From positions 1 through 30,171 of the forward strand of contig JAOXYB010032619.1 of NCBI GenBank assembly GCA_028565635.1: DNA of 30,171 nucleotides. Reading direction: 5' to 3'. The stretch is from Phoronis ovalis (Eukaryota > Phoronida > Phoronidae). The translations under genes were made by a program, and so were the position numbers. Below, piece after piece: positions 1 to 28,996 of the stretch (position 1 is its first letter; each line of letters starts with the position of its first letter). A model generated the notes under the pieces. It saw nothing but the letters and a program-made list of their open reading frames with translations, was not told where the DNA came from and did not search any database.

Positions 1-378
1 AGTCTGTGTTGCCTAACTTTTTTGCATAGTATGCCTTCGGACACTTTCGTCATCAAAAATCGTTCATTGATCAGATCAAAGGCGTAACTAAGACTGTTTT
101 TACATTTATTAGTCTTAGTTGTGACTTGCGTAAATTAGCGGTTAGTATCAAATAGAATTGATTATTTATCATTAGACTAAAATATTGATTTGCATTTTCA
201 TACGTTTGCGTAAAACTTAATATGCTCGATATGAATATGTATGCTTTTCATCTATACAATACCATCTTCGCAATGCCAAGGGAATACTCTCAAATACGTT
301 CTGAGAGTGCATACGAAGAGAGAATCTCCAGAGTTCGGAGGACGATACCATACGTGTACGTGACAATTAAGGAATTGC
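1..378. other. Non-coding flank downstream of the left MRH gene
   Basis: AT-rich sequence beyond the stop codon of the minus-strand MRH gene that ends at 379. It should contain that gene's 3' untranslated region. Reading frames here are short and show no recognisable domain. I see no third MRH copy before the left edge, but one could begin outside the window. Confidence 0.5.
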
Positions 379-6781: not shown

Positions 6782-8299
6782 TTAGGCAACTTCTGATGAT
6801 TTCAAAGTACCATGTCTGTTAACATGACTGTTCATGGCACTTCTTTGGGTGAATCTCATTCCACAGATATGACACTCAAAGGGTTTTTCACCTGTATGTA
6901 CTCTCATATGCCGGCGAAGACTACCACTTTGACCAAAACATTTCCCACATATGTCACATTCGTGTGGTTTTATTCCTGTGTGCGTTTTCTGGTGTCTCGA
7001 GAAAACAATCTGTTTCTGAAATCTTTTGCCACAAACATCACACGCAAATGGTTTATCATCGGTGTGCACAATCAAATGTTCTTTAAGATAATCACTACTT
7101 TTGTACATATTTCCACATATATCACACTGACATGATTTATCGTCATGTGTTGCTAGGTGCCTTCTTAAGAACTGCTTGCGTTTAAATCCTTTACCGCATG
7201 TCACACATTTATATTTCTTTACACTACTGTGCGATTCTTGATGCCTTCTCAAAGGCCTTGTATGCGAAAATGCCTTCCCACAAACTTTACATTCATGAGG
7301 TTTAGCATCTGAATGAGTTTTCACATGTTCAGAGAGATTACCACTTGAAATATATCTTTTACCACATACCTTGCATTTATATGGTCTAAAACCACTATGT
7401 AACCTTTCGTGGATATGCTTGTAATAAGGGTCACTAAATTTTCTTCCACAACTGGCACATTCAAAAGGTTTCTCTAGTGTATGCTTTCTCACATGGATTA
7501 CTAGCTTATATCTTGCAGAAACACAAAACCCACATGTGGAACACTTAAACTTCTTTTTCTTTTTGTGTATGCTCCTCATGTGATTATAAAATGTCCCTTT
7601 ATCATCAAAGCTAACAAGGCACAATTTGCAACTAAATGTGGCTTTACTTAGTTGTTTTACACATGTTTTACGTCTCAAATGTCTATGCAAAGACCCATAG
7701 AGCATGAATTCCCGACCACAAATATCACACAAATATTTTTCCTCGTGTAACTTCTCATGCACTATTAGTTGTTCTCTGTCGATACACGTTTCCTCGCAAT
7801 GCTTGCATTGACGTGACTGTCCGCCTGCTCCTGTGTCAGCTTGGTCAATTCTTGTTAAACATATCACAGCCTTTCTTGTTATTTGTGGATTATTTTGAAC
7901 CATTATATTTTTAGCATTAACTTCTTCCGTCTTAATTGAAAACTTATCATTACTTTCTTGAGGAACCGAATTTGTTTTAATAATGATATTTTTATCATTT
8001 AATGCAGATATACCTGTGAATTCATTCAATTCAGCTGGTTTAAGTTGACAAATTTGAGTCATTACATTTACACCATTTCTATCACTTTCACGTTTAATTG
8101 AGACCTCGTAAAAGTCAGTAGGACTTTGATTAGTAGCTTGAGTTTTTGTGATTGTACTGCTGACAACTATAGATTTCTTACAAGTGATAAATGATACACC
8201 ACTCTGTGTGCATTGCCAGTATTTCCTTTCAGGTTCTTGCATGCCGACAAGTGTAGAACTTGATACAGAAAGCTGGGAGTTTGAATTTGTCTGCTCCAT
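6782..8299 (-). CDS. C2H2 zinc-finger protein with 12 fingers, single coding exon
   Basis: This 505-residue protein is probably a nuclear, DNA-binding transcription factor. Residues 1-164 are low in structure and carry no KRAB, ZAD or BTB domain that I can see. They include two consensus sumoylation motifs, SIKRE near 67 and SIKTE near 121. From residue 165 to about 494 there are 12 fingers. The first three are irregular: finger 1 is CKHC-H3H, finger 2 ends in cysteine (C2HC), and finger 3 has a four-residue histidine spacing. The remaining nine are regular, and the later ones have TGEKP-like linkers such as HTGIKPHEC and HTGEKPFEC. An in-frame TAA at 8306-8308, nine bases upstream, fixes the ATG. 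A possible splice acceptor at 8329-8330 suggests a spliced 5' untranslated exon. The exact orthologue is not identifiable by eye, because poly-finger proteins expand lineage by lineage. Confidence 0.92.
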   Translation of the reverse strand: MEQTNSNSQLSVSSSTLVGMQEPERKYWQCTQSGVSFITCKKSIVVSSTITKTQATNQSPTDFYEVSIKRESDRNGVNVMTQICQLKPAELNEFTGISALNDKNIIIKTNSVPQESNDKFSIKTEEVNAKNIMVQNNPQITRKAVICLTRIDQADTGAGGQSRQCKHCEETCIDREQLIVHEKLHEEKYLCDICGREFMLYGSLHRHLRRKTCVKQLSKATFSCKLCLVSFDDKGTFYNHMRSIHKKKKKFKCSTCGFCVSARYKLVIHVRKHTLEKPFECASCGRKFSDPYYKHIHERLHSGFRPYKCKVCGKRYISSGNLSEHVKTHSDAKPHECKVCGKAFSHTRPLRRHQESHSSVKKYKCVTCGKGFKRKQFLRRHLATHDDKSCQCDICGNMYKSSDYLKEHLIVHTDDKPFACDVCGKRFQKQIVFSRHQKTHTGIKPHECDICGKCFGQSGSLRRHMRVHTGEKPFECHICGMRFTQRSAMNSHVNRHGTLKSSEVA

Positions 8300-8744
8300 G
8301 ATAAATTAAGTAGAACTTCAAAACATTCCTAAATAAGATGTAAAACAGTTAGTGCTACTACGAATCTGTTAAAATGGCAACTGAACTTATCTGTTATTTT
8401 GAATACTGAATATACTATTGGCATCAGAATAATGCATCATAGCAGCTTACGAAGCAGAATTATAAAGACATAGCAATAGCAGGTGTAGTCCAGTATCTAA
8501 CGTATTGGTCCTAATACTTTCCTTTCAAAATGTATCGTCTTTCAAAATTAACAAAACGATGACAATTTTGACATATCAGTAATCTTACTTTGTTATTATC
8601 AACTGAATAAGTGTCTTATTTGTTGAATTTTAACTCAATAAATAGGAAGCGACTGTAATGGTGTCTACATTTAGGCAACATACGAATGATTCAATGAATT
8701 TCTGTACTCATAAGGCCACAACTTTTTAATCGGTCTCGACCTTA
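8300..8744. other. Zinc-finger gene 5' flank
   Basis: AT-rich stretch upstream of the zinc-finger start. It presumably contains the promoter and an untranslated exon, since a TTATTTAG acceptor-like sequence ends at 8329 on the minus strand. No other feature is seen. Confidence 0.4.
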
Positions 8745-9453: not shown

Positions 9454-11005
9454 CCCGTTAGGCGTTATAACTTATAGTTATATATCTCCATAAAGGACTC
9501 GAAACTGCCTATTAACCTCAATTTAAAATCCAAATGTCAAAATGACCTGCTATTTAATTCCACACATGATTGTCTACTGCCAACAACTTTAACACAAACC
9601 TCAAAGATGAATAAACAATTTCAACCTCCTCTAAAGACCATGATTATAATCCAACTCAACGAGTCAACTTTCGCGACTAATTGCATTTTCAGGTGTTTGT
9701 CTGCGTATCAAGGAATTAAAATTTGTTCTTATTAACCTGTTGTACGTCCTGCATGCGAAAATTGGTGCTACAAATCTGAAAATTATATTAAAAAACGAAA
9801 AATATTATGGTAAAAACGGTTGAAAAAATCCGGAACCATAATACCGGAAGTAACCGTGGGAATATTCCCTCCAACTGTCAAGAGCAACTGTTCAAGCGAC
9901 AGCGCTTCATGTGGTAAACTTAGGATATTCTAAAACTTTGTGCATTAAATATGCTAGGGTCCAGGTGGGTGCTACTTATTTTTAAGTATCATGTTTCTGC
10001 CGGGATGTTTTTATTTCATTAATTTCTGTTAAACTAATAGGTAACCTATCATCCACAACTTACTACGTTGTCTTGAACAATTGCTCTCCGCACAATTTAA
10101 TATAATGGTGAATACAAAAGTAAAAGAAATCCGAAAGGTCAAACTTCAGTGAGAATAGACAGGCTTTGGCTATATAGGGATGATAGGACCCCATAAGTGG
10201 ACCAGTTTTTTTTTAATCAATTTAAATTAGTGGATCTGATCAAATTTGTAGAATGAACTCGGTTTCTTAATCAGTTAGGATAGTGGATCAGGGTTGTTTT
10301 TTTTATCAATTAGCAGAGTGGATCCGTTTTTTTACTTATTTCTGTCAGCAAACAGGACTTTTTATTTTTAGCAAACAGGTTTTACCACCAAACAAAAATT
10401 TCTAATTGGGGCTTTTAGCAAGCAAAAGTAAAACTAGGAAAAATAGTTTAAAGGCCACACATCTCTACCCAAAATGTTGTGAAGTACCCTCACGAAGCAA
10501 ATATTTCCATCGATATGTACGACTAAAATGATAACAAACATATTCTATTAAAAGTTCACATGTTATATTTGATAACAAAAAACACCTGAAATTCATAAAA
10601 AAACGATTGTTCATTCGCCATGATATAATTAAATTATATTTCTAAATTTAGTTTATTTCACAGAGGCGTATTGTTAGACTGACATCAGGCGTAAAAAATA
10701 TTAGAAAGGTTTTGTAAATTTACTGCAGGTAGTAGCACGCCACAAAAAGACTATGATATGTACTATAAAATAGCATAGTAAAAAACATTTCTTTTGTGTG
10801 AAAACTGTAAGATGAGTTTTTAACGAGTTTGAATCGTAACAGCACAGGCCCTCGTCAGACAATTTTTCAAAAGGAGGGTGCGTTTGTCAGTAATGTTTTT
10901 AGAATTAACGATTTCAGAAAATACGAGTTACGTGGTTAAAAAAAACTTGACAAGCAAAAAAAGGCCGTTAAACACTTAAAAACTACTTCCCCTTACAAAA
11001 TCCCT
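9454..11005. other. Gene-free stretch with weak degenerate repeats
   Basis: No coding region is recognisable. Between 10196 and 10330 the word AGTGGAYC followed by a T-run recurs four times at uneven spacing (starts 10196, 10229, 10282 and 10317). AGCAAACAGG occurs twice just after. This looks like an old, decayed repeat. A CCGGAAGT (ETS-like) site lies near 9844. Confidence 0.4.
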
Positions 11006-11210
11006 CCCGATTCCGTTATTACGCGTAAAAAAAATTTCCTGTCAATTCAAAAGGGGGGTGCGTTCACAAGTCGGCAAATCAAGTATTATATAACATATAC
11101 GATATAAGATATACGCACACTTAACAATATGCCCGATTCCGTGATTAGGCGTAAAAACATGTTCCTGTCATTTCAAAAAGGGGTTGCGTTCACATCCAAC
11201 GCACCCCCAT
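11006..11210 (+). repeat. Diverged 65-bp direct repeat with a terminal hairpin
   Basis: Units at 11006-11070 and 11132-11194 share CCCGATTCCG, ATTA-GCGTAAAAA, TTCCTGTCA-TTCAAAA and GTTCACA, spaced 126 bp apart. A third, partial unit lies near 10868-10889 (TTTCAAAAGGAGGGTGCGTT). After the second unit the sequence folds back: GGGGTTGCGTT at 11180-11190 pairs with AACGCACCCC at 11198-11207 around a short loop with one bulge. This is probably a fragment of an interspersed repeat family. Confidence 0.55.
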
Positions 11211-12055
11211 ATGTCGGGCCTGTCAGCATACCACAGCCTATAGTTTTAAAATCCAAGTACAATATGTATAATTATTATGGTACAGACCAATTATTGTGTT
11301 GCTTTTATGTATTGTTTAGTGCTTATGGTCAAGCTTCGGTTCCGTCCTATGTTTTTCCTATCGGTTAGTTGTTATTGTTTTGAGTACTAGGCAAAATACT
11401 CATTATTAAGTACTCAAAACATATTGCCACTAAATCCGCATCTGACATCGGCTTTAATCTTCGGTAATGGCACAGTTCAGGAAAACTACCCGGGGTTTGC
11501 AGTCACATAATCACAGTTGGGAGTTCTCGGGGAGGCCGAAAAAGCAGGTAAAATGAAGTTTATAGATACTCGTGAAATCTACAAATCACACTCATACACG
11601 TACACGCTCGCGCGCGCGCACACATACTCGCACTAAGTGTACTGATAGGAAATATTAGTACTTGGCTATTAAGTGGATGGTGCCCCGGTGATACCTGAGG
11701 GGGGTTATAAAGTATTTTCTTAGTTGGTTAAGATTAGGTCGCTCTATTTAATTTTGATACTACGATCCGTACATTGAAATTGAAACATGTCAAATATCGT
11801 ATCGTCTAAACACAACTTTTTAAACAGGAATGTTCCGATGTCTTCACAATCAAATACAGATATTGTGTTTACTTAACAAACTGTATTAATTTAATTATTA
11901 CATTGTTGTATCATTATTTGTCTGCAATTAATGAAGTTCAATACAGATATTGATAATCTATTCTAATTACAGTTATTAATGATAATATAATGCATAATTA
12001 GTTTTCGTAGGCAAAATAAACAAAACAGCTGCGTTGATAAGTAAATTTCCAAGGA
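11211..12055. other. Gene-free stretch with a CA/CG dinucleotide tract
   Basis: No coding region is supported. Alternating purine-pyrimidine sequence at about 11585-11632, including a CG run near 11608, could adopt Z-DNA. The rest is AT-rich unique-looking sequence. Confidence 0.4.
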
Positions 12056-12361
12056 ACACTTCCAAGCATGTGTTGTCACTGTCAATGCTGTAAACAGAAG
12101 GCAGTGACACGTCCAAGCACGTGTNNNNNNNNNNNNNNNNNNNNNNNNNNNNNNNNNNNNNNNNNNNNNNNNNNNNNNNNNNNNNNNNNNNNNNNNNNNN
12201 NNNNNNNNNNNNNNNNNNNNNNNNTGTCACTGTCAATGCTGTAAACAGAAGGCAGTGACACTTCCAAGCATGTGTTGTCACTGTCAATGCTGTAAACAGA
12301 AGGCAGTGACACTTCCAAGCATGTGTTGTCACTGTCAATGCTGTAAACAGAAAGCAGTGAC
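12056..12361. repeat. 51-bp minisatellite spanning an assembly gap
   Basis: Units start at 12074, 12225, 12276 and 12327, with a period of exactly 51 bp. A partial unit precedes them from 12056. Each unit begins TGTCACTG and contains CAGTGACA 20 bases later, a perfect 8-bp inverted repeat. Units are almost identical on the right side. The left unit differs at a few bases near 12110-12121. Because 51 is divisible by three, the array gives an open frame on the minus strand, which I treat as an artefact. Confidence 0.95.
12125..12224. other. Assembly gap of exactly 100 N
   Basis: The run is exactly 100 N, the usual placeholder for a gap of unknown length. It lies inside the minisatellite, so the true array is probably longer than shown. 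Confidence 0.97.
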
Positions 12362-15300
12362 TATGAGTTTAATAAGTAACGTCAACAAAAGTTGTGACTG
12401 CAAAAAAATGATGTAATTCTGAGTGAAATTCAAATTTATTCAACCTGATTTCTATTGCATTGACTTATGAAGCAAGTAAATGTGACTATTGCGCATTAGA
12501 TCTCGGTTTGCTAAAAAATTTAATTTTCAGAACAAAATTGTTCCACTATTACCATGCCGCTATGGTTCCTATAGTCATATCGCATCGCAGCGCATACTCT
12601 GCTTGTAGCCTTGCTTATTAGATCTTACACTTAAACTGCTTTTTCTTGTTTTTCTGTGTTAAATATTACAAATTTATTCAAATTTTATTTTAAATACGAA
12701 AATTTAATTTTTCCGTGCCATAAGAAGTAGAGAAAAGAGCAATTTTAACTTCAATGTTGATGTTCAAATTACAAGAGGATTTGCATTTCTTGGTTTCCCA
12801 TGCAATACTGGATTGTCTATATTTGCAGCATCCCGAACAACCGTAATAATTAGACACTGCAGTGAAAAAAAGCTCACAAAATACTTCTTCGAAATTTTTT
12901 GGCGTAACTCACAGCTTATGAGCTTTTCCATTTAGTACCTTTTGTCAATAGTAGCGCAAATAATAACTTATTCATTTGCTTACGTGAAAAACAAGTAAAT
13001 TATCACACCTCTAATTAAATTTCATGTGTGCTTTGAATCAATCAAGCTTATATATTTTTATATGAAATTCGATATGTTTTTCTTTCAACCAGATCGCAAT
13101 GCTAACTAACCGGTTAAAATTCAATAGTAACTGAAATCACTAATTAGGCATCAACTCATTAATCTCTTTGTTGCCACAGGAAGCGCGCATGTAACTAAGT
13201 ACGTGTAAGTAATGCCCGAAATCTCTGTATATTGTTGTGATAACAAATGCTTTTTTACGAATTGGCAAGTATTTTCGACTTCAGTGACAATAGAGTTGTT
13301 TGAAGTTATCCACTCGGCTGGCATATCACCCTGAACTTCATCGAATGTACTGCATAACAAATGGTAGCTTTAGTAGATCTTGGATATCGATATTTATGGT
13401 AAGTAGACATTAATTAATGGGGAAAAATGTTTATCAGATAACTTAATTTTGTTACTTTATTTTTTATGATGTACTGTGTCTGTGCGTGGGACGAAAAACT
13501 AATGCTTATATGTTAACGAGAGCTTAACAAGAGATTATTATTATTAGCATGCGTGGAATTGTGTGAAATAATTTATAGTTTTATTACAGAATTGTTTTTA
13601 CTGAAATCCTAGAAAACATATATAATGGGTTACATTTTCTTCTACTTTTGCTCAATAAATGTTTACTACCAGCTAGTTAAAATCGGGTTTTGTAATAGTA
13701 AAATACCAGCAAAATATTTTTTTACCTTGCCAACTCATTTTTTAGTATGTACACTCATTACAGTGTTAAAAATGTTTCATGGATCGATCAGAAGTATTTG
13801 GCCTCATTGACATTGGTCTTCCATTAATTAAGGCCCATTGTATATTTACACCTGCCTTGGTCTATAATTATTATATTGTGTAACATACATAATTACCCTT
13901 ATAGTTTACCTATAATGATATAATTAGTTAATTGATAAATTAGAATAATATTAGCCGTCCATGGATGTAGAACAACTATATACACGAATTCTTTATTTCC
14001 AATGTGAGTATCCATATAATGAATTGTGTTACATATTTTGTTTTATTTTTATTTTAAGTAAAAGTGCAATGTCAAAAATAACATTCTTAATTGCACAATA
14101 CGGTCACCTCAGCAATTGTGACAGGATGCTATTGTAGGATTAGTTTAAAAGTAAGACAGAAGTTTCGATGGTTTTTAGAAAATTTAACACAATTTTGGTT
14201 AGATTTCCATTTCTTACCGTGACTCCATCTGCATCATCATATTAATTTGCATTTTATCCCCTATCAGCTGAAACACAACTTACGCATCAGTGGATGTAAA
14301 AAATATTGATTTATAATTTTCATTCACAAGTCATTGGTATACGGTATATTATGACAACTCACACACCTGGTTGACGCAGCAACAGTGTGCGATGCTGGCT
14401 ACAGTATAGATGGGTAATCAACATTAGTACTACAAACATAATTAATTAAGAGCATATGCTATAGCTAACTTGATAGAGACGGAAGTAATAGGTGCTGGTA
14501 AGTTTTTTTATGCAAACTCTTGTGTTGACGAATGCGAAAAATTGTGATATAATAACTAGATCAATATAGTTAAATGTACATATATTTGTTCAGTACAAGC
14601 GCTAACTCATACGTCAGCCTCGCTGTACGCCCCCAAGGATTCGGGATGGCTCTTGTCTATAGTAAACAGGCCTAAAAATATAGGGTTTAATCGTGTTTAA
14701 TATCGGCTATGTAATATATTCAGCACTATGTGTACGTCTGTGCTGTTTGCATACGTAGGAGGCAACGATTCTTAAAAAATTGCACGCGGTTTTCATTTTT
14801 AAATTTAGTATCACACTACCCTTTTTATTTTTGTATGGCAAAATAAAAAGTTAGTTGTACTGTAATATTGGCTGCAGTTACTAAATCGACAATCGTGACT
14901 GAAGATTAGTACAGAAATTAAAAACTTATTTTATGATCGTGGATTACAAGCACTGTCACCAACATTAAAACAATGTATCTTTTTACACTCATGGTATGTC
15001 ATAACACAAAAAAATACAAAGTGATAATCATTGTTTTATTCAGTAGTTTATCGTGACTGAAGATTATCTAATGTGCACGGAGTGCATTTATTTCAGATTG
15101 AAGATTAGTTTTGAATTGTTGTTGTTGCTCCATATTTAACGAGAACATTGCCCTTTGCCTTGTTTAATTTTAATATAGAAAACAAAGAGAATATTAAGCT
15201 AGCCACTGATCCAGAACTAAATATAACTAACTACATTCTACAAAAATCTTCAGCCGAGAATATGAAATGGTACTAGTGCCTTCGCCCTATTTTCACCATA

Positions 15301-15561
15301 ATTACCTTTATTTTAAAATAATGTGTTATTAAGTATTTAAACTTAGAAGGTAATATTTGATTCTTTAGAACGCCTCTAAAAAATAACTTTTTTGCTCCAA
15401 TTTCAAAAAAATTCTTGCGTGATGTTTGGGAGAGGTTAGGATATAACACTCTCAGAGTTTTATATATCCTAGGGAAAGGTGACGCAAACTCAGAAAAAAG
15501 CACTTTTTAAATTGGCGATCACGTGCCCAAATCACCTAGTAAACTGTTCTGTAACCATGCC
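12362..15561. other. Gene-free upstream flank of Arx, part 1
   Basis: I find no convincing coding exon. A minus-strand open frame at 13151-13360 (69 codons) has no recognisable domain. A 17-bp word containing TCGTGACTGAAGATTA occurs at 14892-14908 and again at 15050-15066. Less AT-rich patches near 14360-14400 and 14600-14660 stand out from the background and could be regulatory. Confidence 0.4.
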
Positions 15562-15843: not shown

Positions 15844-18800
15844 GCATATCACTGATATTATCTGTCACGCAAGTTAGCACATTGCTCTAAAATACATTTT
15901 GTTTAGGTATATCAACGAAATATGTTGCACATAAAAATGAGCACAGTTTATTTAATTTATTCCATGTACAAAACGACGGGGATTTATTAGAGTTTCATTT
16001 CTTGACTGCCAACAGTACCAATCACAATTTTGATTCACGGCGCCGTATTACTAATTAAAGTACATGTACGTTTTAATTTGCTTTTGTGGAATAGTAAGGG
16101 CTCATTAAAATTTAGCATATGCAGGTGGCATATTCGTAACCCTATGCCAGTATTGACGTTGAATTTCGTAAATAAATAATAGCAGAATATCTCCACTTAA
16201 TTAAACTGAGTGTATACATGATTATTCAGATTTTTAAGAGTATATTTGTAAATTTTATGCGTTCCATGGCCATATTTAATTTCAAATGGTGTTGTTTTAT
16301 TTGCATCATGATCGATAAATCTTGTTTTTGCATTGCCACTAATTGTGACGGAAACAGTTTCAACAACTATTGCTATTATTTTTGTATCACTCAATGTAAT
16401 TACCCATTTTCTGTCAACTTTTTTACTATAATAGGCATTATTATAACCCTCATAGTGTTGAGAAAAAGTAGTTTATAATGAGGACAGGACATGGATAATA
16501 GAAGTTTAATTTGGATGATGGGTTTTATTATTCAAAGGGAAAGTAGTATATTAAAACCAGAAAATACTGCGTGCAATTAAACCCGAAATAATTTCCCTTT
16601 TCTCATCTTATCCTCTCCCGCTCGACAGCTCTCAGACCGCTCACTCCATTTGTCAGATGGTGCTGCTCCTGAATTATGATTGTTTATCAAACGGTGTGTG
16701 TGACCAGGCCTGGCATTGTAAGCTTCAGCCGAAATATTCTTTTAGGTTTCGTCATGACACAGATAGTAATAACACAACAAAATCGATAAAATTGATACAT
16801 CTATATATGAAATAATATCTGTAAATAAGTAAATTTATATTGCTTCCATTATGATATGAATAATCATGTAGCATAAATCTGTAGCGCCTCTCCAGGCACC
16901 GTGCTACATAATTAAGTTTTTTTAATTGGCACATATTACATATGTGCGGTATGTGCGGTATAATTACATAGTATACGGGTAAATCAATTATTTTCCTAAT
17001 TTTCCAACAAATAAAACGGGTCATTATTTTTTACCACGTGTTTTATATCAAACTGAACATCATAAATCTTTAAAAATATTCCTAATTACATTTAAATATA
17101 TGCTATTGTGTACTTAATTTATCTCGATCAGCATTTTGGGCAAAACATAGCGTAAAAGGGGATTGTGTGAGTTTGAAAAACAGTAGGGATCGACCCCAGG
17201 CTGATTATACACTATGTTAATAGTTAATTTACAGATATTGTAATCAGTTATTACAAAAAAATCAAGAAATTTTCAAGACAATTTCCTGGAGCTTCACTAA
17301 CTTATTATCTATGAATCACAAGTCTCCAATAGTTCCATCTATGCCTGCTTCAGGAAACGGAAGCCGAGATAGTGCTGGCTGTATTCAGCTCAGCTTGGTG
17401 CATATTTGCTCACAAATATCTAACATAACGTAGATGCATCTAAGTGATAAATACGTTTGTCGTCTAAACTATAGGGGATTTGGAAACGAACATATTCGTA
17501 TTCATAGTTTGTCAACAAAACGACGCGAAACATGCGTAAAACAAGACCAGTATTTCGTAAAAAAATTTACGCTCTAGTTTCTTCTTTTGTCGAGGTTTAA
17601 TTGCATTAGAAAAATAATGAATCCAATTATCTGGGCCAATTATGAGGAATAAAATACATACGGGTTAATTAGTATCATCTGACGTATGTATACTTTACCG
17701 GTAGGCGAGGCTCATTAGTCTGAATTCGTGTACTAACAAATTAAACATTTTAATTGGATATTATTAGATACACACGATCAAAATGCTACGTTATCAGCAA
17801 CAGAAGTTGAAAAAGTTGAAATTGTTACATTTGGCTAGCAAAATTTATTAGTGTGAATGCTATATGCTACACATAATTTGTATGCAACTTTGCTACACCG
17901 GGTTTATCTTCCAAGATGCTCCGAGTGCAGCATATATAAGCATTCTAGCGAATTTACTGCAAACACTTTAATTCGATATGTGTCGTTTTTGTACTAAATA
18001 ATTGAGGATAAAACTTGTCTTACAACAATTACTACCGCGAACACCTGGAGAACAGTTATTTTTAATTCATTTACGGCATGTCAGAAATTATTTTTGGCAC
18101 AAAGTTACGTTTTCTAGCTTGTTGTTCCATTTCGAAGGAAACTATTACTTATTCTAAATTACCAAGGGCTACAATTAAGGTGTTAATAAGACTAATTAAG
18201 TTGTTAACCTTGTCAAAATAATTATACGCTATTATTTGAAACTCAATCAGCCTGATCAGCGTAACAGTTTGAAATCATATACAAAATATGCTTGTGTTAA
18301 ACAAGTTTCAATTGTAAGGATAATTTTTTTGACTTTTCATTTACCATGACAGTTCACTGTGCTAAAAGCAAAAAAGGTAGAAAAGGCGAAATTAACCCTT
18401 TTGATATATGATATATAACTGTTTTCCTTCAAAATGTTTCTAAGTTTTACATTTAACACCCCTAAAGTAGTAAGATGGTGTCTTCCAATTTCTTGATCCA
18501 CATACATGTAGATTATCACGTGTCAAATTCCTTGATATGTAGTTTACTAATAGAATAAAATCATAATTATATAGATGTCCATTCTGAGATGCAATTCAGG
18601 ACTTTAATTCCTAAAGTTCACTGTTTCGTTTGATATATAAGTTTTAGAAGAGGATTGCTAATACCAATAAAGCAACAGTGCGCTATTCTCTTATTCTGCA
18701 TGAAGGTATTACATGTTTAATTCAGTTTTACCTTAATAAAGGTAAGCTTGTCATTTCAATATACATTTGCACGGCTCTACAATTATTGTTTCAAAATGTT

Positions 18801-19682
18801 ATTAAAAATCGTAAAAAATTAAAAGTATTTACAATTATTTTTTGTTAATTTCTAGTAACGGTCTGGTATAATCCGATAGGCTTCTCATGCTGACTAGACA
18901 TTAGTTATATAAATTACCATGTTATAGTTTTTTATAACTAACCTTAAGACATTTACAAACAGCGCACTAGTGGTACGAGAATCTACTGTACATCTTTAGA
19001 CAGTAGGAGGTTGAAAGGTGGCTGAATAAAGATCGTATTTTCTTTTATTTTGTTACCAAAGAAAAGCCTATTACGACATGTTAATGTGTTTACATAGTTA
19101 TATTTATATTTATAGCTCAATAGAAATATCCATTGATGCACGCCTAAACTCAATACACAAATCGTTTACCATAGTTAATGTTATCATTACTCTTCATTAT
19201 ATAAACTTGCAAATGTCTATATTAGTAGTGAACCCGATCCAAGATGATATACAAAATTTATATATATTTATACCGCCAAAGGTGGTAAAACAACTGTAGC
19301 CAAGATTATAGTGTCAATTGATAATCTCAGTGTATCCTTAAGATTAAGTTACCTTAATATTGTGAAGTTATAAAGCAAGAAATTAAACTTAACAATATAA
19401 ATGTAAGAGACTTTTTGACCACTTTTAACGCGTTGATATCATGTACTAGATTGTTGATCTTGATTGAATAGTTTAATAGTATAATAGTCCTTAATTTAAT
19501 TTGATAAAAGATAATATTTGTTATTTTTCAGGCTAAATATATTTGTTGAAGCCCGTGGCGCATGTTAAGAATACAAAACACTTGAATGTAATAGCCATTA
19601 TCAAAGAATAGAAAACTTGGTAGCTTAAAGAGGAATCAACAAAACAGACGAAATATACTGCTACGTTGGAATTAACAACAAT
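15844..19682. other. Gene-free upstream flank of Arx, part 2 (promoter-proximal)
   Basis: No coding exon is seen. A CT- and GC-richer patch at about 16600-16690 holds CATTTG (16647-16652) and CAGATG (16654-16659) E-boxes and a FOX-like TGTTTATC at about 16681. A TATATAAG lies at 17933-17940. A splice-acceptor-like TTATTTTTCAG ends at 19531, so a 5' untranslated exon may be joined there. An in-frame TAA at 19626-19628 rules out coding continuity from that acceptor into the Arx ATG. Confidence 0.45.
17933..17940 (+). promoter_or_regulatory. Candidate TATA box upstream of Arx
   Basis: TATATAAG is preceded by a GC-richer stretch, 1.74 kb upstream of the Arx start codon. If used, the transcript would begin near 17965 and be spliced to the acceptor ending at 19531. 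The match is good but expected by chance in AT-rich DNA. Confidence 0.22.
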
Positions 19683-22600
19683 ATGCAGAGTACACAACAA
19701 TTAGCCAGTGAAAACACTAAGCAAATTAATAGTAACAACACTATTTATCGTCCGTTTACTGTTTATAATGCACAACCAAACTCAAAGCATGCCGAGGTTG
19801 CTTCATTAACACCTGCGGACCAGTTTGTGGAACAATGCAAATCAGATATTAAACATCTTCGTGATCCAGTTAATGAAGAGTTGGAAAAGAATTGTAACAT
19901 GGACAAGAAAATAGACGGTATTTCGTCAAATGATAATCGGGAAAGAGTCATGAGTGAAAGCAGTGAGGAATTCGTGGATGATAGAAAAGTCGCAATAAAT
20001 AATAATAGAAATGATCGAGTTATGGATGAAGATGATAAAGTTAGCCTAACAGAAAGCGAAGACATTGATTTTGAAGAATATGGCAAAAGAAAACAGAGAA
20101 GATATCGAACAACATTTACAAGTTATCAGCTCGAGGAATTAGAGAGGGCCTTTCATAAAACACACTATCCTGATGTTTTTACAAGGTAGATACATGTAAA
20201 AAAATGAGTTTTATCCAAGTGGCCACAATACTAATTACCTAACCGTGTGGCAGATATTATATCAATGCCTTTACAAAAATGTATACTTTCATTTAACAAC
20301 ACAAACTTCAAAGTACAAATTAAGTGTAAATAGGTCCCGAACAGTACTAACCATCTCAAAGTGAGATTTTCTTATGAATTACGTAACGTGTGATTCAGAT
20401 CTATATGAGGTAAATTTTGTTTAAAATAATCAACAAAAAATGTAAGATTACAACTCTAATTGTATTTCTTGAATTTTACAGGGAAGAGCTGGCAATGAGA
20501 ATAGATCTGACAGAAGCTCGAGTACAAGTAAGATTAAAATTGCTAATTAATGTAATTACTAGTTATTTAACATTTGTGTATCTAAAAATAAAGCAACAGG
20601 ATGAATTCGAAGTAGTCAGAATTATACTAAGTTATGCAATGAACGACGTTTAACAGCCATAGCTAAAGTTGAGACGTCGACCAGGTTCTAAGATCATGCT
20701 CTCAGACAGCAACATTTTTTTCCAAAAAAGTAACAAAAGCAACGCGCTAGGTTGCAGGAGAATATACCGATCTGGAAAGTCCGCCCCTATATACCAATAT
20801 TTTCTTCTGTTTTTCATGCAATTATTTCTATTTAAGAATTTTAGTAATCGAGTATCTAATATAATCATAATAGTATATTAATATCTTAGGTATAACTTCT
20901 GCATCGCCCACGTTAAATAGTTTTGCTTAATATATGTGTGTAGAAAAATATTAGAAAATTATGGACGCATTTAATACAAATCTCTTTTTCCAATTAATAG
21001 AATGTATATGTATATGCACTTTAATTTTTACAAATAGTATAATTAAGGATACATGATTGTATTTATATAATTAAGGTTAACTATATTTAACTTACAAGTT
21101 AAGGATACAAGACTTATAGAAGAGAATTACAGACGATTTTTAATTTAGATCAATACGATAAAAATGAATAATAGATAGTGTGGGAAAACACATGTTTTTG
21201 GAATTAAAGTATACACATATATTCATTGATGCGTGAAAAGGATGAATTAATAAGATTATAATATTGAGTGATTAAATGAATATATCTGATTTAATCAAAT
21301 TGATATGAAGGATGAGTGTACCTAAAATATCCGGACAAAATGCTTAAGTATGTTAAGAAGTTTGTCCGGATATTTTAGTTGCGGCTACAATTGTTTCACA
21401 CAGGTAACAAAAAGCGGTACTAGAAAGTCAAACGCACTAGTTCATTTGTGTAAATTGAATTTCCGTTTGCAAACGCTCAATATCAATAATTATTTTAACT
21501 AAATACTAAGAAATCAACTGCACAGGAATTTATTATATGTTATTAATTAATAAAAACAAACACAAGTAATTATTGATACAAGTAAAACTACAAACTACAA
21601 GTGTTTCTTTAACCTCTGAGGAGGTACTTTTTTTAAGATAAAGAGCCGGGTTATTTTGCAGACATATTTCATAAAATAACATCATTGCTTTATTGGAAGG
21701 ACTAATATTTCCCTTGTCAATGACAAATTTGAATGCATGTTACACAATGCTGCGTTTTCTGAGGAACAGTTTCAACATTTGCTATTTGGCTATTTGGTTG
21801 CGTTGAAGAATTAAAGGCACACAGAAAGAATTTTTCATAAATTTCCGCAAATAATTAAGAATTTGACAACATCCCAAAATTCCTTTTAGAAAAATATAAA
21901 AATTGAAAGAGAGGAAAGGTATTTAAAACATAAGTTCTGTATAAATATTGTAATTTTCAATAATTACAATTAAAAATATAATTCACAGTTGGATAATTAT
22001 GCATGTACATGTACAAAACTCGCCCTTCATGTTTTATATAATTTTGAATATTTCCTGAAATCACTTTCTACAAACTGTAAGTAAATACCACAATTCTACG
22101 CTAAATTACATGTAACATTTTCTATAATAATTGTGACGAAAACGTGTAGTGATTTAATCTGTGAGAATTATTCTAAAAATGTTGCTATTGGTAAAAGCAT
22201 ATGGATTCGATGTAAAGACAAATAAGTACATGTAAGCAATGGAAAATCGTCCAGTGCAAATAGGTAATAAAATCAACTGTTTACAAAAAGAAATATCTGC
22301 AAACAAATGAAACAGGGGTTGTTGACTTAATCGAACAAGATATAAGTGGTAAATAATTATTTTTAATTACCTAAATAAAAGATTTTGAAGCTTTTAGAAT
22401 CTTATGAAAATAAATTAGGCTGCTTGATAAAACATACACATATTAAAGCAAATTTAGTCTGTTTATTGGGCATTGTAATCCAATTTGACAATTGTTTGCT
22501 CATTTTGAATTGAATGCAAGGTTACAACAATTTTGCAAAATACCCCATTTGTACAATTATGTAAATTTATAAACGGTTTTGTATTTATTTTAAGGCAAAG

Positions 22601-23719
22601 TATTTAGGGACAATTGCTATTGATAATATGAATGAGTTGTTTGATATAACATGATCAATTTTCTTTGATAATAATTGTTGAATAGATATTTTCATTTAAT
22701 AGTGTTGATCTTTGTAAAATAAGTTGACAATGAATAAATTAATTTTAATAATTGCAAGTATGCTAGGCATTTATGACGAATGTATATTTACTGGGAATGT
22801 ATATTTCTAGATTTTCCTCACAAACAATGGATAGTCAAATGTACCAAATCTTGTACATTCTATGTAGTTATAAAACATGTGTTTTATGTTGTCATTACAG
22901 AAACCGTAGTGTGTTGTCATGGCAATCCACACATAGGGTACACCACTACATTTAAAATATAACTTCATGCATAAACAGTAGCTCATCGCATCCCTTCAAA
23001 AGAGCTGGATGCCAAGCCTGATAACTAAAAAAATTACGGACAATTTGAATTAACGTTGTTACTTGACCACATCATTCCATTTCGTTTTTCAGGTATGGTT
23101 TCAAAACAGAAGAGCCAAGTGGAGAAAAAAGGAAAAAGTTGGACCCCAAAGTCATCCATTTATTCCCTACCCACCTAACACTGTAGGAGTTGCCCCAAGA
23201 TTATTAAGTGGATTACCAAATCAACCAAGTTATGTGGATACAGTTTCAAGGGATTTTTTATTGAAATCCTATGAAAGTTCTGCTGCCATGGCTGCACTAA
23301 GTAGATATTCTGCTTTGCATCAGTTAACCAATAATGGTGGTATACATCCAAATGCCTTGGCAGCCATGTTGCCTTCAGGACTGAGTAATAATCCAATTGC
23401 ACATTTCTTAGGTACTTCTTCACCTCTTCAACATTCATATCACACTGGATTACCAGGTGGTATACCAAGTTTACCACCAATGGGTTCTTTTCAAAATATT
23501 TTAACTACGATGACAAATATGTCTGCCAGTAAATCTCAGACAACGTTAAGAAAATCACCTTCGTTATCACCTCCTGTACTTCCAACAATAAATTCAGCTA
23601 AAAGTCCTGATAGAAAATCATCAAGCATTGCTGCTCTGAGATTGAAAGCTAGAGAACACGAACTCAAATTAGGTCTGTCACCGCCCAAGATAGTTGACGA
23701 AGTGGACATAATGTGTTAA
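19683..23719 (+). CDS. Arx: Aristaless-related homeobox transcription factor (three coding exons)
   Basis: Coding exons at 19683-20185, 20482-20527 and 23093-23719 give 391 residues. In known animals Arx is a nuclear regulator of forebrain interneuron and pancreatic or endocrine cell fates. The paired-like homeodomain spans residues 138-197, with Gln at homeodomain position 50 (Q187) and the WFQNRRAKW recognition helix. Basic clusters KRKQRR and RAKWRKKEK flank it. The acidic stretch [10 protein letters not shown] to DIDFEEY (about 91-133) precedes it, as in other Arx proteins. The OAR (aristaless) motif, [18 protein letters not shown], lies at 359-376, and the protein ends in a free cysteine as Arx proteins do. 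The 46-bp middle exon splits the homeodomain after FTR and before VWFQN, the usual paired-like intron positions. An in-frame TAA at 19626-19628 supports the ATG. Oddities: no polyalanine tracts and no recognisable N-terminal octapeptide. It is shorter than human ARX (562 residues). Confidence 0.97.
20186..20481 (+). other. Arx intron 1
   Basis: A 296-bp intron within the homeodomain, with donor GTAGAT and acceptor TTTTACAG. The codon for the arginine before EELAMR is split (phase 2). Nothing else is recognisable inside. Confidence 0.93.
21322..21378. repeat. Perfect 18-bp inverted repeat (hairpin) in Arx intron 2
   Basis: CTAAAATATCCGGACAAA at 21322-21339 is matched perfectly in reverse complement at 21361-21378. 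The 21-base loop contains a second small palindrome, CTTAA-GTATG-TTAAG. Either a tiny foldback transposon remnant or a structured RNA could give this. The bases immediately outside the arms do not pair. Confidence 0.9.
22913..22926. promoter_or_regulatory. RFX X-box-like palindrome in Arx intron 2
   Basis: GTTGTCATGGCAAT matches the symmetrical RFX-family X-box in all but its last base. It lies about 170 bp before the third exon, in a locally less AT-rich patch. Function is inferred from the motif only. Confidence 0.35.
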
Positions 23720-23959
23720 GCATATTAGACAGATAGCGTCACATAGGCACATATAGGCATCATCATCTATTCTGGTTTGGGACCAACATATTAAAAGCAG
23801 GATGGAAATGGGATATACTCTGATAAAGTTGTACTGACGATATACTGACATCATATCTTAATTGGTATGGAAAGAATTCTCCCAGGGATATTCTATACAT
23901 ATTATGTTATATACTTTGCACATATTTTGTGAAAATATATCTGGTTTGTGCATATAGCA

Positions 23960-23965
23960 AATAAA
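23960..23965 (+). terminator. Arx polyadenylation signal
   Basis: A canonical AATAAA lies 241 bases after the Arx stop codon, followed by a T-rich and TG-containing stretch at about 23978-23993. This gives a compact 3' untranslated region. Confidence 0.6.
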
Positions 23966-24670
23966 CATAAATTTTGCATTTTTTTTCTTTGCATTTACCA
24001 GAAAATCTATTTTTGTAATAGATAAACTTCTTTCAGTTCATTATAGGAACAGTATTAATCGGGATCAAAATATATTTGTTCTAGGTCGATGGCTTCTATC
24101 TTTGTTCACTCTGATTCTATGTATTGTTTTCTTTACTTTTATTGTGTTTTGCTTAATTATTCAGTAATACATATTTTAAAGTTTAAAGCCATACGGGTTC
24201 ACTTATCTATAACTTATCACGCGCAGCTTACAGACAATGCAATTTGCAATTTAAATAAACCGGTATGTTATTTAATATATTCCCTTCGTGTCTAGTATGC
24301 GCCAGCCATTACACGAGTTTACACATTTAGACTGATGTCATTTCATGTGGAAACCATTACACTCGTGACAATCCAATATCCACATACAGCAGAAGATCGT
24401 GAGAAAGCTAATATGAAATGAAAGTTTTATACCCCACGAGAGACACGAAAACGGTCAAACAAAACTTGTATATGAACTACATTGTTTATATGATGCAAGA
24501 TTCATTCATCCATTAACCAAATCGTTTCATGTTATCGTTTTAAATTTTAACAAAAATGTCTCGAGGGAAAATTGACGTATGTTTCAACACAAACCGATGA
24601 CATACAAAGCTTAATTAGAGTAACATTTGAGGAAATGAGCATTCATCAGACAAAAGTAAACTCCCTTGTT

Positions 24671-24745
24671 CAGCTGTTCAATCCGCCCTCAGGTGAAAAA
24701 TCTTATAATTAAATCAAACATAGATAGAGTAATCTAATTCACCTG
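24671..24745. promoter_or_regulatory. E-box and homeodomain site cluster 3' of Arx
   Basis: CAGCTG (24671-24676), CAGGTG (24690-24695), TAATTA (24706-24711) and CACCTG (24740-24745) fall within 75 bp. TAATTA is the preferred core of paired-like homeodomains including Arx. This is a candidate bHLH/homeodomain enhancer, not proven. Confidence 0.3.
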
Positions 24746-25259
24746 CTTAGAAATCTTATTGTATTCTATAGATTTATTAATTTCCTTAATTTTTTTATCT
24801 ATTAATGTATTATTTTTTTATTGGCATGCATCAATCATTCATGTGAAACTCGTATTTTTTGTTCTTAGATAATTTCCTTTTAGTTATTTTCAATTGAAAC
24901 TTACATATTTTCTTAATTACACTTCCTTTGTCTAATTAATTTTTAATTGCAAGAAAGCAAAATATCTCTCTACTAACCTATATAGCTGTATAAATATCAA
25001 TTATTACCATACAAATGTAATGAAACGATATAGACATTTCTGTATTTATTCTATTGCTTGTTGTATAAACAACTTCTCGAACTTTATTTATGGAGTACAA
25101 TAGAAATCGAGTTAAGTACAATCCGTAATTAAAATCTAGTCTGGATCTAGTTACATAAAATAAAATTCTAAATAATTGAAGGAAAAATATTAGTCCGTTC
25201 TTTTTTTCCTAATGGAAAACCATGCTTTTCGTTTCTTTTACCCCATGTAGCTTCAGATG

Positions 25260-25278
25260 TGACGTCATAGAAACAATA
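25260..25278. promoter_or_regulatory. Perfect CRE next to a SOX-like site
   Basis: TGACGTCA at 25260-25267 is the full palindromic cAMP-response element. AACAAT (SOX-like) follows at about 25272-25277. It lies between the convergent Arx and POLA1 genes. The CRE octamer is rare by chance in AT-rich DNA. Confidence 0.35.
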
Positions 25279-26084
25279 AGGTTAAGGCAACTGGTATTTC
25301 CCTCATAGGGAGATTTCCTAAATTTAAAAAGTTTCTTAGAACAATGACCGAGTGTTTCAAAATTACAAACCAACGCTTTTATTATTTACATCATTCAAAG
25401 GAAAGATTTACATGTCATTTACTAATTATAGTTAGTTATAAACATTTTTTTTATATTACAAAATTTGTGTAGACATACAGGTGGATATTTTTTATACTCC
25501 AGCATGCTATTGTTCCTTATTGCAGACATATTTAACCTCACGGTAGTTGTATTCCATCACTTGTTAGTACTATTAGCTAGCTAGTACATAGCATCTGTCA
25601 ATAGTCCCAGGATTCTAGGCAGAGAGATGCCTACAACCTGTTTATCCTCCGGTGCATATTTCATCAATGAATTCTTCGCACTAATAATTTTTATTAACCC
25701 TTTGAGATTAGTAAATAAGATGACAAACAAACGCGTATATGAATTAAAATTTATTTTTTATACATACAGCTTCAGAATTCACATTCCAATGGCTACCTAT
25801 TCATGTAACTCTAGGAAACTAACAGATTTCGATTTTATAAGCATACTAATTTAAGCCATCAAATATTTTGTCAGTTTTACATTTATTCTATATGTCAATT
25901 CTACAAATTTACCATATATCAAAGTTTCTTAAAAATATGCTTTGAATTTATAGTAACAGTTCCCCTTGAATATTCATATAAAAGTTAATGTACCTTTCAA
26001 CTTTCAAGTTCAATATAAAACAGTGATTTCTAATTTTACCATTTACCATTGCGAGTCATTTATCTACATAAATATGGAAACTGA

Positions 26085-26090
26085 TTTATT
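26085..26090 (-). terminator. AATAAA overlapping the POLA1 stop codon
   Basis: On the minus strand the last codons, ATG AAA TAA, run into an AATAAA hexamer. The hexamer overlaps the stop, so if used the 3' untranslated region would be only about 20 bases. Another AATAAA lies on the minus strand near 25881-25886 and is the more usual choice. Confidence 0.3.
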
Positions 26091-28996
26091 TCATTGTAAA
26101 CAGTCCTTCGAACAGTTTGTTTAAGTTGACTTTTGAATATGCATTTTGTTCTAATTTCTGTCGTATGTGTGACTTCAGTAGATTGTACTGCTCTTTGTAA
26201 GCATCAGACACTCCTGCAGCAACTGAAATTTTAAAAATAATTATATGTAACATACAATAGATATTTTCTCATTCACAAATAAACTAAGGAAATTAAACAA
26301 TAAAGATACCTAAGTTGATCTACAAGGGCATGGTGACATTGGTCAAAATAATGCTTTACACAAATTCTCTCCTGCCACTATAATCTCAACAGGTTTTCAT
26401 GCAATGAGCAGAGGTGAACTGGTATTTGAAAAACACGGATCTCTTAAACTAAAGGAATGGAACATCATACTCGGCTGATTCACCCCTAAGTCAGCCACTG
26501 TAAAAGATGAAATATATACCTTTTCTACCTTCAAATGGCAATAGTTCTATAGCTTTAGGCAGGTTAAACATATATTGGTAGAACAACATCTGAGTATACA
26601 AACTAGTATCAGAATACTGTAAAAAAACAAATACATAATTATAATTTGCAATTTATTTCTAGTATTTCTTATTGATTTCAAAAATTAGTAACACTATCAA
26701 GAACATAATTTGCAAGATTATAAAAAATAGTCAAATATAGAATAAAAAAAAAATAACACAAGATTTCGATATCTCGACATATATAGGGATATTTAGTGGA
26801 GGCAGCAAATTAATTATAGACTGTTTATACAGCAAAACAACAAAATCATTCTTTAAATATTTGTTCATGCTTGTCTATAGTTTGGTTTATTTTATAATGC
26901 AATTTATAATACAAGTAGGAACAAAACAACTATAAGACAACATAAAAAAGTGGAGACAACATAAATATCTACATGTAGATTCATCTACATATTCAAAAAC
27001 TAAATAGTTTGGTTGAAGTTCATGAGCACTCATTACCTCAGCTTCCAAATTCCCTCGATGACAGGTCTGACATGTTACGTGTCCACGGTGATAATTGAGA
27101 GGAAGTTTACGAGTTCTAGCAGCACATGTGGAATCATCACATTTCATCCAACCCTACATTACATAACGGTATTATAAGATTTGCTTGAAGGTTATATCAC
27201 ATATGACACAGAAATCAACGATTTGCATTACATTAACAACCCTAAACTGGGATTAGGTTATTGTGGTATTATAATGCTAATTGTGACAGTGGCAAATTTA
27301 AAAGACTGGATTTTTGTGAAGAATGCACTTACTTCATAATATTTTTTGACAAAAGATCGAATGTCCAATGTGAGCTTGTTGATAAGGACGTCAACATTGT
27401 CTCCAGGCCTGTAACTACATTTTTCATTTGTACAGGTTTCCAGTGAGCACTTGAGTGCAGTTCCCTAAAAGAAAAATATACAAAGTCTTGACTGCTATAT
27501 ATGCTGTTAGCCTGCTGCATAAAGGTTTTCAGGCAGATGATTTTTTTATTCTTATCTAAGTAATACTATGCATCATTTCTTAAAGGAGTTACATTGCTGT
27601 AAAAAACTGAGTTACACAACTTCAGTTCTAACACAATTCTGTTTTATCCTTTCAAAATGACTTTGTAAGACAGAAATAGATGAGTTATTTACAGAGAAAT
27701 TTGAGACTTATTTTATAACTTTAAATTTAGAAACATGCAGTGTGAACCACCCAATTTGTTGGTTATTTTTACAAACAATGTGATTTTTATTCTTTAAAAA
27801 GAATACATTTTCATACAACAGTTTACAAATTTAAATCAGTTTGTTTTGTTACCCTTTTTAGTAAATCAAGTTAACCATGTCACGAAGCAATTGCAAGGAA
27901 TGACACGTCTCAGGCACTCAATCAACTTAAACTATTAAAAACATACTTCATTTAGCAAGCCATTTCTTTCAAAAGTGTCTAGAATAAAACCTTTTAGCTT
28001 AAACACACTTAATTTAAGTTCACAATAAAGACAATTTAGACTCACACCTGGATTTAAAGGGTTTGAATTAATGTAATGCGAGATTAAGAGGTAGCTCAAT
28101 TGTTGAAACACGTAAATATTTTGAAACATGGACAATCATAAGCCTATCCGAAGTTCAAATATGTACACTTTCAATTGGTTTGTTTAACTAAGTTGTAGGT
28201 TATGACTAGCATTCTTTGTGTATACTCGTGACTCGTTATATAGAATTATTGTAATAGTCATGACTCCTAGCAATTACAGGTAGACTAAATTATATCTTCT
28301 TTTAAGTATTAGGTCAAATCAGCCAAACACTTGGGATGGCAAAAATGAAAATTGATATTCTAAAAGGACAAAGTGCATGCATCTTGAAACAGGTAACTTG
28401 TCAATCATATTTTATGCATATATGCAAGACACACTTAGCGAAAAATAATCCCTTGAATAAATTTATGTAACAACAAATTATTTTTAATTTGAAGTAGCCG
28501 AGACAACTGCCACTCGGACAATAGGTAGCGGATATCTCAAACTTTGTGCTAACATCAGGTAACAAAATTGAAAGCTGTCAAATATCACATAAATTTCAAT
28601 GAGCTATACTACTACTATATTAGTGAAATAATGAGAGTCAAATTTATGAATAGGATTGTTCCAAACAAAAAGATGTACAGCTTCTGTTTCAAAAACATTT
28701 TTATACTTAATCTATAGAAAACAGATTAGTTATAATCATACTTATATAATCATACTTATTTGAACAAAGCTGAATGGAACTATGCCTAAATGTTGCAAAA
28801 TACAAGATACATAGACTTACCATCCCAACAAAAACACCATCAAAGATGATTTCCTTCTTGCATATAGGACACACAAATTTGAATCTGTCACAATCTTTGT
28901 ACCGTTCTTCCTCAGAAAGTTGAGCACCAAGCATTGCGTCTTCTTCATCGTAGGCCTGATGTTGCATGGAATGCTTGTAACCTGATGGATCAAGCC
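26086..28996 (-). CDS. POLA1: DNA polymerase alpha catalytic subunit, last five coding exons (partial)
   Basis: Minus-strand exons at 28821-28996, 27333-27464, 27037-27153, 26520-26616 and 26086-26222 encode the final 218 residues; the 5' part lies beyond the right edge. The subunit extends RNA primers at nuclear replication origins within the primase complex. The first exon starts LDPSGYK and has YKDCDRFKFVCPIC. Zinc module 1 is CPIC plus CSLETC in the next exon. Zinc module 2 is KCDDSTC plus CQTC. The spacings C-x2-C and C-x4-C match human p180. The link NKLTLDIRSFVKKYYEGW is nearly invariant in the family. The last exon carries YSKVNLNKLFEGLF, corresponding to the C-terminal segment that contacts primase in known complexes. 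Introns are 1,356, 179, 420 and 297 bp, all GT-AG. The gene runs head-on toward Arx. Confidence 0.97.

What the first reader, a model, noticed from the sequence alone, without database searches (positions are those of the whole stretch)
19683..28996. Arx and POLA1 lie tail-to-tail, as in vertebrates
The sequence shows a complete Arx on the plus strand converging on POLA1 on the minus strand, with 2,367 bases between the stop codons. From memory, human ARX and POLA1 are also immediate neighbours at Xp21-22 in convergent orientation, and several ultraconserved Arx enhancers lie between and within them. Finding the same order and orientation in a distant invertebrate suggests a genomic regulatory block in which POLA1 is a bystander held in place by Arx enhancers. 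The alternative is chance retention.
Basis: partly seen in the sequence, partly recalled or inferred. Interest (0 to 1): 0.82.

Follow-up and report, generated by a model that had tools for sequence, protein, structure and literature searches.

The report
Ancient tail-to-tail Arx–POLA1 gene pair
An invertebrate, likely of the mollusc-and-annelid branch, carries the developmental control gene Arx and the DNA-copying gene POLA1 tail to tail, 2.4 kb apart, as in vertebrates; the pairing is likely over 500 million years old and would be kept by Arx's control DNA, which remains untested.

Summary
Arx (three exons, 391 aa, homeodomain plus OAR) lies on + at 19683-23719. The last five POLA1 exons lie on - at 28996-26086. 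Most of the rest of POLA1 follows in order on contig C4440, so it is most likely one gene cut by a contig end. By POLA1 tree and Arx similarity the animal is likely a lophotrochozoan outside Mollusca. In protein listings, Arx and POLA1 share a contig in 6 of 9 lophotrochozoan and 4 of 6 vertebrate species that could be compared. In two unionid mussels their locus tags differ by six; elsewhere only shared contigs are shown.

The regulatory-block reading is only partly supported. The homeodomain core TAATTA is doubled around Arx (45 seen, 22.4 expected; first of 64 AT-only hexamers against 20 control contigs), but that region set was chosen post hoc. The excess is clearest in intron 2 and upstream, weak in the interval, and absent from POLA1's 3' introns. 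Conserved non-coding sequence could not be tested, because no related genome was held. It is a likely new member of a known kind. I could not check whether the 2012 pan-metazoan microsynteny list already includes it.

The parts
19683..20185 (+). Arx coding exon 1 (predicted start codon; N-terminal part and first half of the homeodomain)
20482..20527 (+). Arx coding exon 2, 46 bp, inside the homeodomain
   Evidence: GT/AG borders and frame
20528..23092 (+). Arx intron 2; TAATTA 12 seen, 4.9 expected; no other copy found in the assembly
23093..23719 (+). Arx coding exon 3 with homeodomain end, OAR motif and stop
23720..26085 (.). 2,366-bp interval between the two stop codons; no other copy found, no Pfam domain; weak TAATTA excess (7 seen, 4.0 expected)
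26086..26222 (-). POLA1 last coding exon with stop
26520..26616 (-). POLA1 coding exon
27037..27153 (-). POLA1 coding exon (zinc finger)
27333..27464 (-). POLA1 coding exon (zinc finger)
28821..28996 (-). POLA1 coding exon; the exon before it is on contig C4440
29977..30171 (.). repeat at the contig end inside a POLA1 intron (41 other matches listed, 40 of 365 candidates scored); likely cause of the contig break
9500..19650 (.). Arx upstream region without Pfam domains; TAATTA excess strongest at 12500-15500 (11 seen, 4.5 expected)

Best explanation
The window holds Arx and the 3' end of POLA1 facing each other tail to tail with 2,366 bp between their stop codons, an arrangement likely inherited from the common ancestor of protostomes and vertebrates and probably kept because DNA that controls Arx lies around Arx and in the shared interval. 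Shown: gene identities, order, orientation and distance, and the collinear continuation of POLA1 on contig C4440 (the physical join of the contigs is inferred). Shown in part: shared contigs for the pair in other lophotrochozoans, with close linkage in two mussels. Inferred: that the adjacency itself, and not only the chromosome, is ancestral. Inferred and untested: that Arx enhancers, probably including homeodomain-responsive (self-regulating) ones in intron 2, upstream and less clearly in the interval, are why breaks between the genes are selected against, so that POLA1 is a passive passenger. In this genome the motif signal sits on the Arx side and stops before POLA1's introns. A break within the interval would cost Arx part of its 3' control; a break inside POLA1 would damage an essential polymerase, and that alone could protect one flank.
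For: Identity and anatomy. Same printed contig length for Arx and POLA1 in Owenia, Babylonia, Littorina, Argopecten, Sinanodonta and Potamilus (6 of 9 lophotrochozoan species with both numbers), and in Betta, Scophthalmus, Megalops and Rhinatrema (4 of 6 vertebrates). Locus tags ACJMK2_019087/_019093 and CHS0354_023347/_023353, each six apart. TAATTA is 2.01 times expected over 15.1 kb on the Arx side, against 1.11 in 20 control contigs (Poisson P 0.0002 at the control rate); none of the 20 contigs reaches 2.01 (highest 1.83), 0 of 20,000 random sets of five 3-kb control pieces (drawn from 56) reach it, and it ranks first of 64 AT-only hexamers. No other copies were found for 15900-23100, for the interval, or for 26000 to about 29263, while repeats lie on both sides. 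In mice, deletion of ultraconserved Arx enhancers gives brain or growth defects, and in zebrafish three mediate ARX autoregulation (PMC8955779, passages).
Against: Arx and POLA1 are on different contigs in Nucella, Mizuhopecten and Candidula (all contigs under 5 Mb) and in Myxocyprinus and Acipenser (polyploid fishes, by recall). In four of the six positive lophotrochozoans only the same contig is shown, which a shared ancestral linkage group would also give. The interval alone has no significant motif excess (40 of 300 shuffles reach it; 8 of 56 control pieces), and the POLA1 3' introns have none. Taken singly, only intron 2 (P 0.009) and 12500-15500 (P 0.012) stand out at the control rate. 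Spaced homeodomain pairs (P2, P3) show no clear excess. The second-ranked hexamer, TTAATT (1.78 against 1.81), overlaps TAATTA, so the excess may partly be a broader sequence bias. The Arx-side region set was fixed. No sequence conservation was tested. The pair is unlinked in Drosophila and C. elegans (recalled), so it can be broken.
Confidence: 0.5

Rival explanations
1. Ancient neighbours kept by inertia: the pair was adjacent in the bilaterian ancestor and has simply not been broken in slowly rearranging genomes, with no selection on the linkage.
For: Same-contig linkage in 6 of 9 lophotrochozoans fits conserved linkage groups as well as constraint. The POLA1 3' introns show no Arx-type motif signal. 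A 2.4-kb target is small and rarely hit.
Against: Adjacency, unlike chromosome membership, is usually lost over such times (general knowledge). Two mussels still have the genes within six locus tags. There is a homeodomain-site excess around Arx.
Confidence: 0.38
2. Independent convergence: the two genes became neighbours separately in vertebrates and in this lineage.
For: Nothing specific; adjacency was not tested in the animals in between.
Against: The prior chance that a given pair becomes adjacent in a given orientation is about one in tens of thousands (inference from gene number), and linkage in an annelid and molluscs points to common descent.
Confidence: 0.04
3. A repeat-poor block protected mainly because both flanks are genes: insertions and breaks from about 15.9 to 29.2 kb would mostly hit Arx or POLA1 exons, introns or 3' ends, so coding and transcript constraint alone keeps it together.
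For: No other copies found over most of about 13 kb, with the two 3' ends close and possible poly-A signals at 23960 (+) and 25887 (-).
Against: About 1.9 kb between those possible 3' ends and 3.7 kb upstream of Arx are neither coding nor, on this guess, UTR. Coding constraint does not explain linkage in mussels where other tags intervene.
Confidence: 0.08

Closest known systems
Vertebrate ARX-POLA1 locus with ultraconserved ARX enhancers (hs119, hs121, hs122, hs145 and others)
   Same: Arx 3' end faces POLA1, neighbouring genes (PMC8955779 passages; POLA1 orientation recalled).
   Different: Human interval and POLA1 introns are far longer (recalled) and the region holds tested enhancers. Here no enhancer is known, and upstream of POLA1 lie Asparaginase_2 matches, not PCYT1B.
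Genomic regulatory blocks (GRBs) with target and bystander genes
   Same: A developmental homeobox gene next to a housekeeping gene in conserved linkage; the candidate motif signal is centred on the target.
   Different: The defining array of conserved non-coding elements was not testable; no motif signal in the bystander's 3' introns.
Ancient metazoan microsyntenic pairs (Irimia et al. 2012, seen here only in a reference list, and recalled)
   Same: Unrelated genes kept adjacent across bilaterians, one of them a developmental regulator.
   Different: Whether Arx-POLA1 is in that list could not be checked (paper not held).

Membership tests
Arx (aristaless-related homeobox) | Paired-like homeodomain of Arx type | tested here: met
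   59/60 to four lophotrochozoan Arx rows, 57/60 to three vertebrate ARX rows, 50/60 to ALX4
Arx (aristaless-related homeobox) | C-terminal OAR motif | tested here: met
   PF03826 32.4 bits, cut-off 20.1
Arx (aristaless-related homeobox) | N-terminal octapeptide | tested here: not met
   Not in the predicted protein and not found at 8.3-19.7 kb by pattern or by tblastn of 12 Arx proteins. The Lingula hit P0003 also lacks a clear one (read by eye). It may lie elsewhere; not treated as essential for the family.
POLA1 | Polymerase alpha zinc-finger C-terminus | tested here: met
   PF08996 164.7 bits and solved POLA1 at 5.7e-55
POLA1 | Alpha-type N-terminus and B-family core in the same gene | tested here: met
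   In order on C4440 up to near its end; the physical join of the contigs is inferred
Conserved ancient microsyntenic pair | Adjacent in distant phyla | tested here: inconclusive
   Adjacent here; recalled for vertebrates; tags six apart in two mussels; otherwise only same contig, 6 of 9 lophotrochozoans
Genomic regulatory block | Array of conserved non-coding elements across target and bystander | not testable with these tools
   No related animal genome held
Genomic regulatory block | Elements control the target, not the bystander | not testable with these tools
   Needs reporter or deletion assays

The most novel reading that the evidence does not exclude
Arx-POLA1 is one of the oldest regulatory blocks in animals: the convergent pair and homeodomain-driven self-regulation of Arx from its introns and 3' flank already existed in the bilaterian ancestor, and the vertebrate ultraconserved brain enhancers are descendants of that control DNA, which later spread into POLA1.
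Probability: 0.25. Interest if true: 0.75.

Novelty: new member of a known kind. Interest (0 to 1): 0.5.

Why it matters
The ARX-POLA1 region holds some of the best studied ultraconserved enhancers, whose age and reason for existing are open. A protostome with the same gene pair in 2.4 kb would give a small, testable version of the locus. If its intron 2, upstream region and interval act as Arx enhancers, the vertebrate block has a bilaterian origin; if they do not, linkage alone can outlive regulation.

Tried and rejected
Considered and dropped: a three-gene block with PCYT1B (human neighbour, recalled and in PMC8955779 and PMC3826498 passages): the first 10 kb of C4440, upstream of POLA1, show only Asparaginase_2 matches in six frames. 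A second Arx or POLA1 copy or an allelic contig for a divergence test: none found. An N-terminal octapeptide exon: none found. Spaced homeodomain pair motifs: no clear excess.

Literature on Arx-Pola1 synteny in invertebrates: 0 papers hold ARX, POLA1 and microsynteny; 0 hold ARX, POLA1 and synteny; 12 hold POLA1 and ARX (titles and abstract starts seen; passages of two of them; none on invertebrate gene order by title); 0 hold aristaless-related, DNA polymerase alpha and synteny; 5 hold Arx and microsynteny. Four broader searches (6 of 6 listed, 20 of 79, 20 of 35, 15 of 899) listed none on this pair by title. A search for human ARX exon 3 mutation names found none, so the shared 46-bp exon is only a recollection. 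Irimia et al. 2012 and Dickel et al. 2018 were not held.

Caveats on controls: DNA searches scored only 39 of 591, 40 of 365 and 40 of 603 candidates; 23101-23719 was not searched as DNA. Control contigs gave their first 9,000 bases only; three of the 20 hold long N runs, and 4 of 60 pieces were dropped for that. In one search the counts against aristaless and ALX4 were one residue out of register and were redone. The Biomphalaria genomes hold Arx paralogues (PMC8848322 passages), so some molluscan Arx rows could be a paralogue.
Full report
What is there. The window is one whole contig (C1611) of a 77.4-Mb, 4,805-contig animal assembly. Arx lies on the plus strand in three coding exons, 19683-20185, 20482-20527 and 23093-23719, joined at GT/AG borders into 391 codons plus stop. 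Pfam finds a homeodomain and an OAR motif. The homeodomain differs at one residue of 60 from Haliotis, Patella, Owenia and Lineus Arx, at three from three vertebrate ARX rows, at eight from Drosophila aristaless and at ten from ALX4. Apart from a first row, a tick protein matching over 14% of the query only, the best named matches are molluscan, brachiopod and annelid Arx. POLA1 runs on the minus strand. Five exons from 28996 to 26086 total 659 bp, two bases plus 219 codons with stop, and give the alpha-type zinc-finger end. Residues about 21 to 1265 of a mollusc homologue, with no match for 188-305, lie in order on contig C4440 up to near its end, so POLA1 is most likely one gene cut by a contig break; a repeat with 41 other listed matches ends the window there. 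The stop codons are 2,366 bp apart, and no other Pfam domain was found in six frames around them.

Which animal. A tree of 25 POLA1 proteins groups the window's gene with molluscs, annelids and a nemertean (100/100) against deuterostomes, outside the molluscs (100/98 for the 12 molluscs), with its exact sister unresolved. The tree held no ecdysozoan, brachiopod or phoronid. Arx similarity agrees with a lophotrochozoan: 59/60 homeodomain residues shared with four of them, against 52 to 55 for the insect and onychophoran rows shown. The window's Arx shares a short N-terminal YRPF with Lingula Arx (seen by eye), a weak hint only.

Is the pair conserved. No animal genome with gene order was available, so I used the contig length that the protein database prints for each hit. 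Where Arx and POLA1 of one species give the same number, they share a contig. By my reading of the listings (120 rows each, 39 rows) there are 15 species with a number for both genes. Same contig: Owenia, Babylonia, Littorina, Argopecten, Sinanodonta and Potamilus (6 of 9 lophotrochozoans); Betta, Scophthalmus, Megalops and Rhinatrema (4 of 6 vertebrates). Different: Nucella, Mizuhopecten, Candidula, Myxocyprinus and Acipenser. In Sinanodonta and Potamilus the locus tags differ by six, so a few annotated genes may lie between. In Owenia, Babylonia, Littorina and Argopecten the test shows only the same contig. No ecdysozoan POLA1 is among the rows listed, so linkage there was not tested; in Drosophila and C. 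elegans the genes are unlinked by recall.

Regulation. The block model predicts Arx control DNA around Arx and in its neighbour. I counted TAATTA, the core site of paired-type homeodomains (recalled), because three ultraconserved ARX enhancers mediate autoregulation in zebrafish (PMC8955779, passages). Against dinucleotide shuffles it is in excess in Arx intron 2 (12 against 4.6; 0 of 300 shuffles reach it) and at 9500-15500 (16 against 7.6; 0 of 300). It is weak at 15900-19650 (31 of 300) and in the interval (40 of 300), and there is no excess at 1-6700 (96 of 300) or in the POLA1 3' introns (253 of 300). Twenty control contigs, taken at even steps through the assembly and cut into 56 usable 3-kb pieces, have 1.09 to 1.11 times expectation, and the Arx side 2.01 (45 against 22.4). 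No control contig reaches that (highest 1.83), and TAATTA ranks first of 64 AT-only hexamers, closely followed by the overlapping TTAATT. The POLA1 body on C4440 (17 against 14.2), the asparaginase region (5 against 8.6) and the Hox contig (13 against 12.8) look ordinary. The set of regions called the Arx side was fixed, spaced pairs of sites show no clear excess, and motif counts do not prove function.

Repeats. No other copies were found for 15900-23100, for the interval, or for 26000 to about 29263, while repeats lie at 0.6-1.3 kb, 3.5-3.7 kb, 6.4-6.8 kb, 8.5-11.2 kb, 15.5-15.8 kb and 30 kb, with weak matches at 29.3-29.7 kb. This fits a protected block, but without a genome-wide comparison its rarity is unknown.

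How it most likely works. The most economical reading is an ancestral convergent pair. Arx control DNA around Arx, in intron 2 and possibly in the interval likely makes breaks costly, and POLA1 is carried along. In this compact locus the motif signal ends before POLA1's introns, so the vertebrate habit of keeping Arx enhancers towards POLA1 is not shown here and may be later. Plain inertia is nearly as likely.

What is known. The vertebrate locus, its enhancers and the general model of target and bystander genes are established (PMC8955779 and PMC5728398, passages). My searches found no paper on this pair in invertebrates, but the key 2012 catalogue of ancient pairs was not held, so the pair may already be listed. 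I score it as a likely new member of a known kind.

Noticed in passing
G000:C3291 12181, 16388, 20971 (L014): Three homeodomains on one strand 4.2 and 4.6 kb apart that read as Hox3, Hox2 and Hox1 (assignment by recall of their sequences): a compact anterior Hox cluster.
   Followed up: partly
window 6782-8305 (-): Open 507-aa C2H2 zinc-finger frame without introns, the nearest domain-bearing gene upstream of Arx.
   Followed up: partly
G000:C4440 1-10000 (L016): Asparaginase_2 matches that look like two tandem gene copies upstream of POLA1, where vertebrates have PCYT1B.
   Followed up: partly
window 635-1348: Repeat with dozens of other places in the assembly that also matches its own reverse complement at about 71%, as a long palindromic element would.
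   Followed up: no
window 21322-21378: Inverted repeat in Arx intron 2 (84% self-match on the other strand), no other copy found in the assembly.
   Followed up: no
window 12500-15500: Strongest TAATTA density upstream of Arx (11 seen, 4.5 expected; 1 of 56 control pieces reaches this ratio), a candidate enhancer region.
   Followed up: partly
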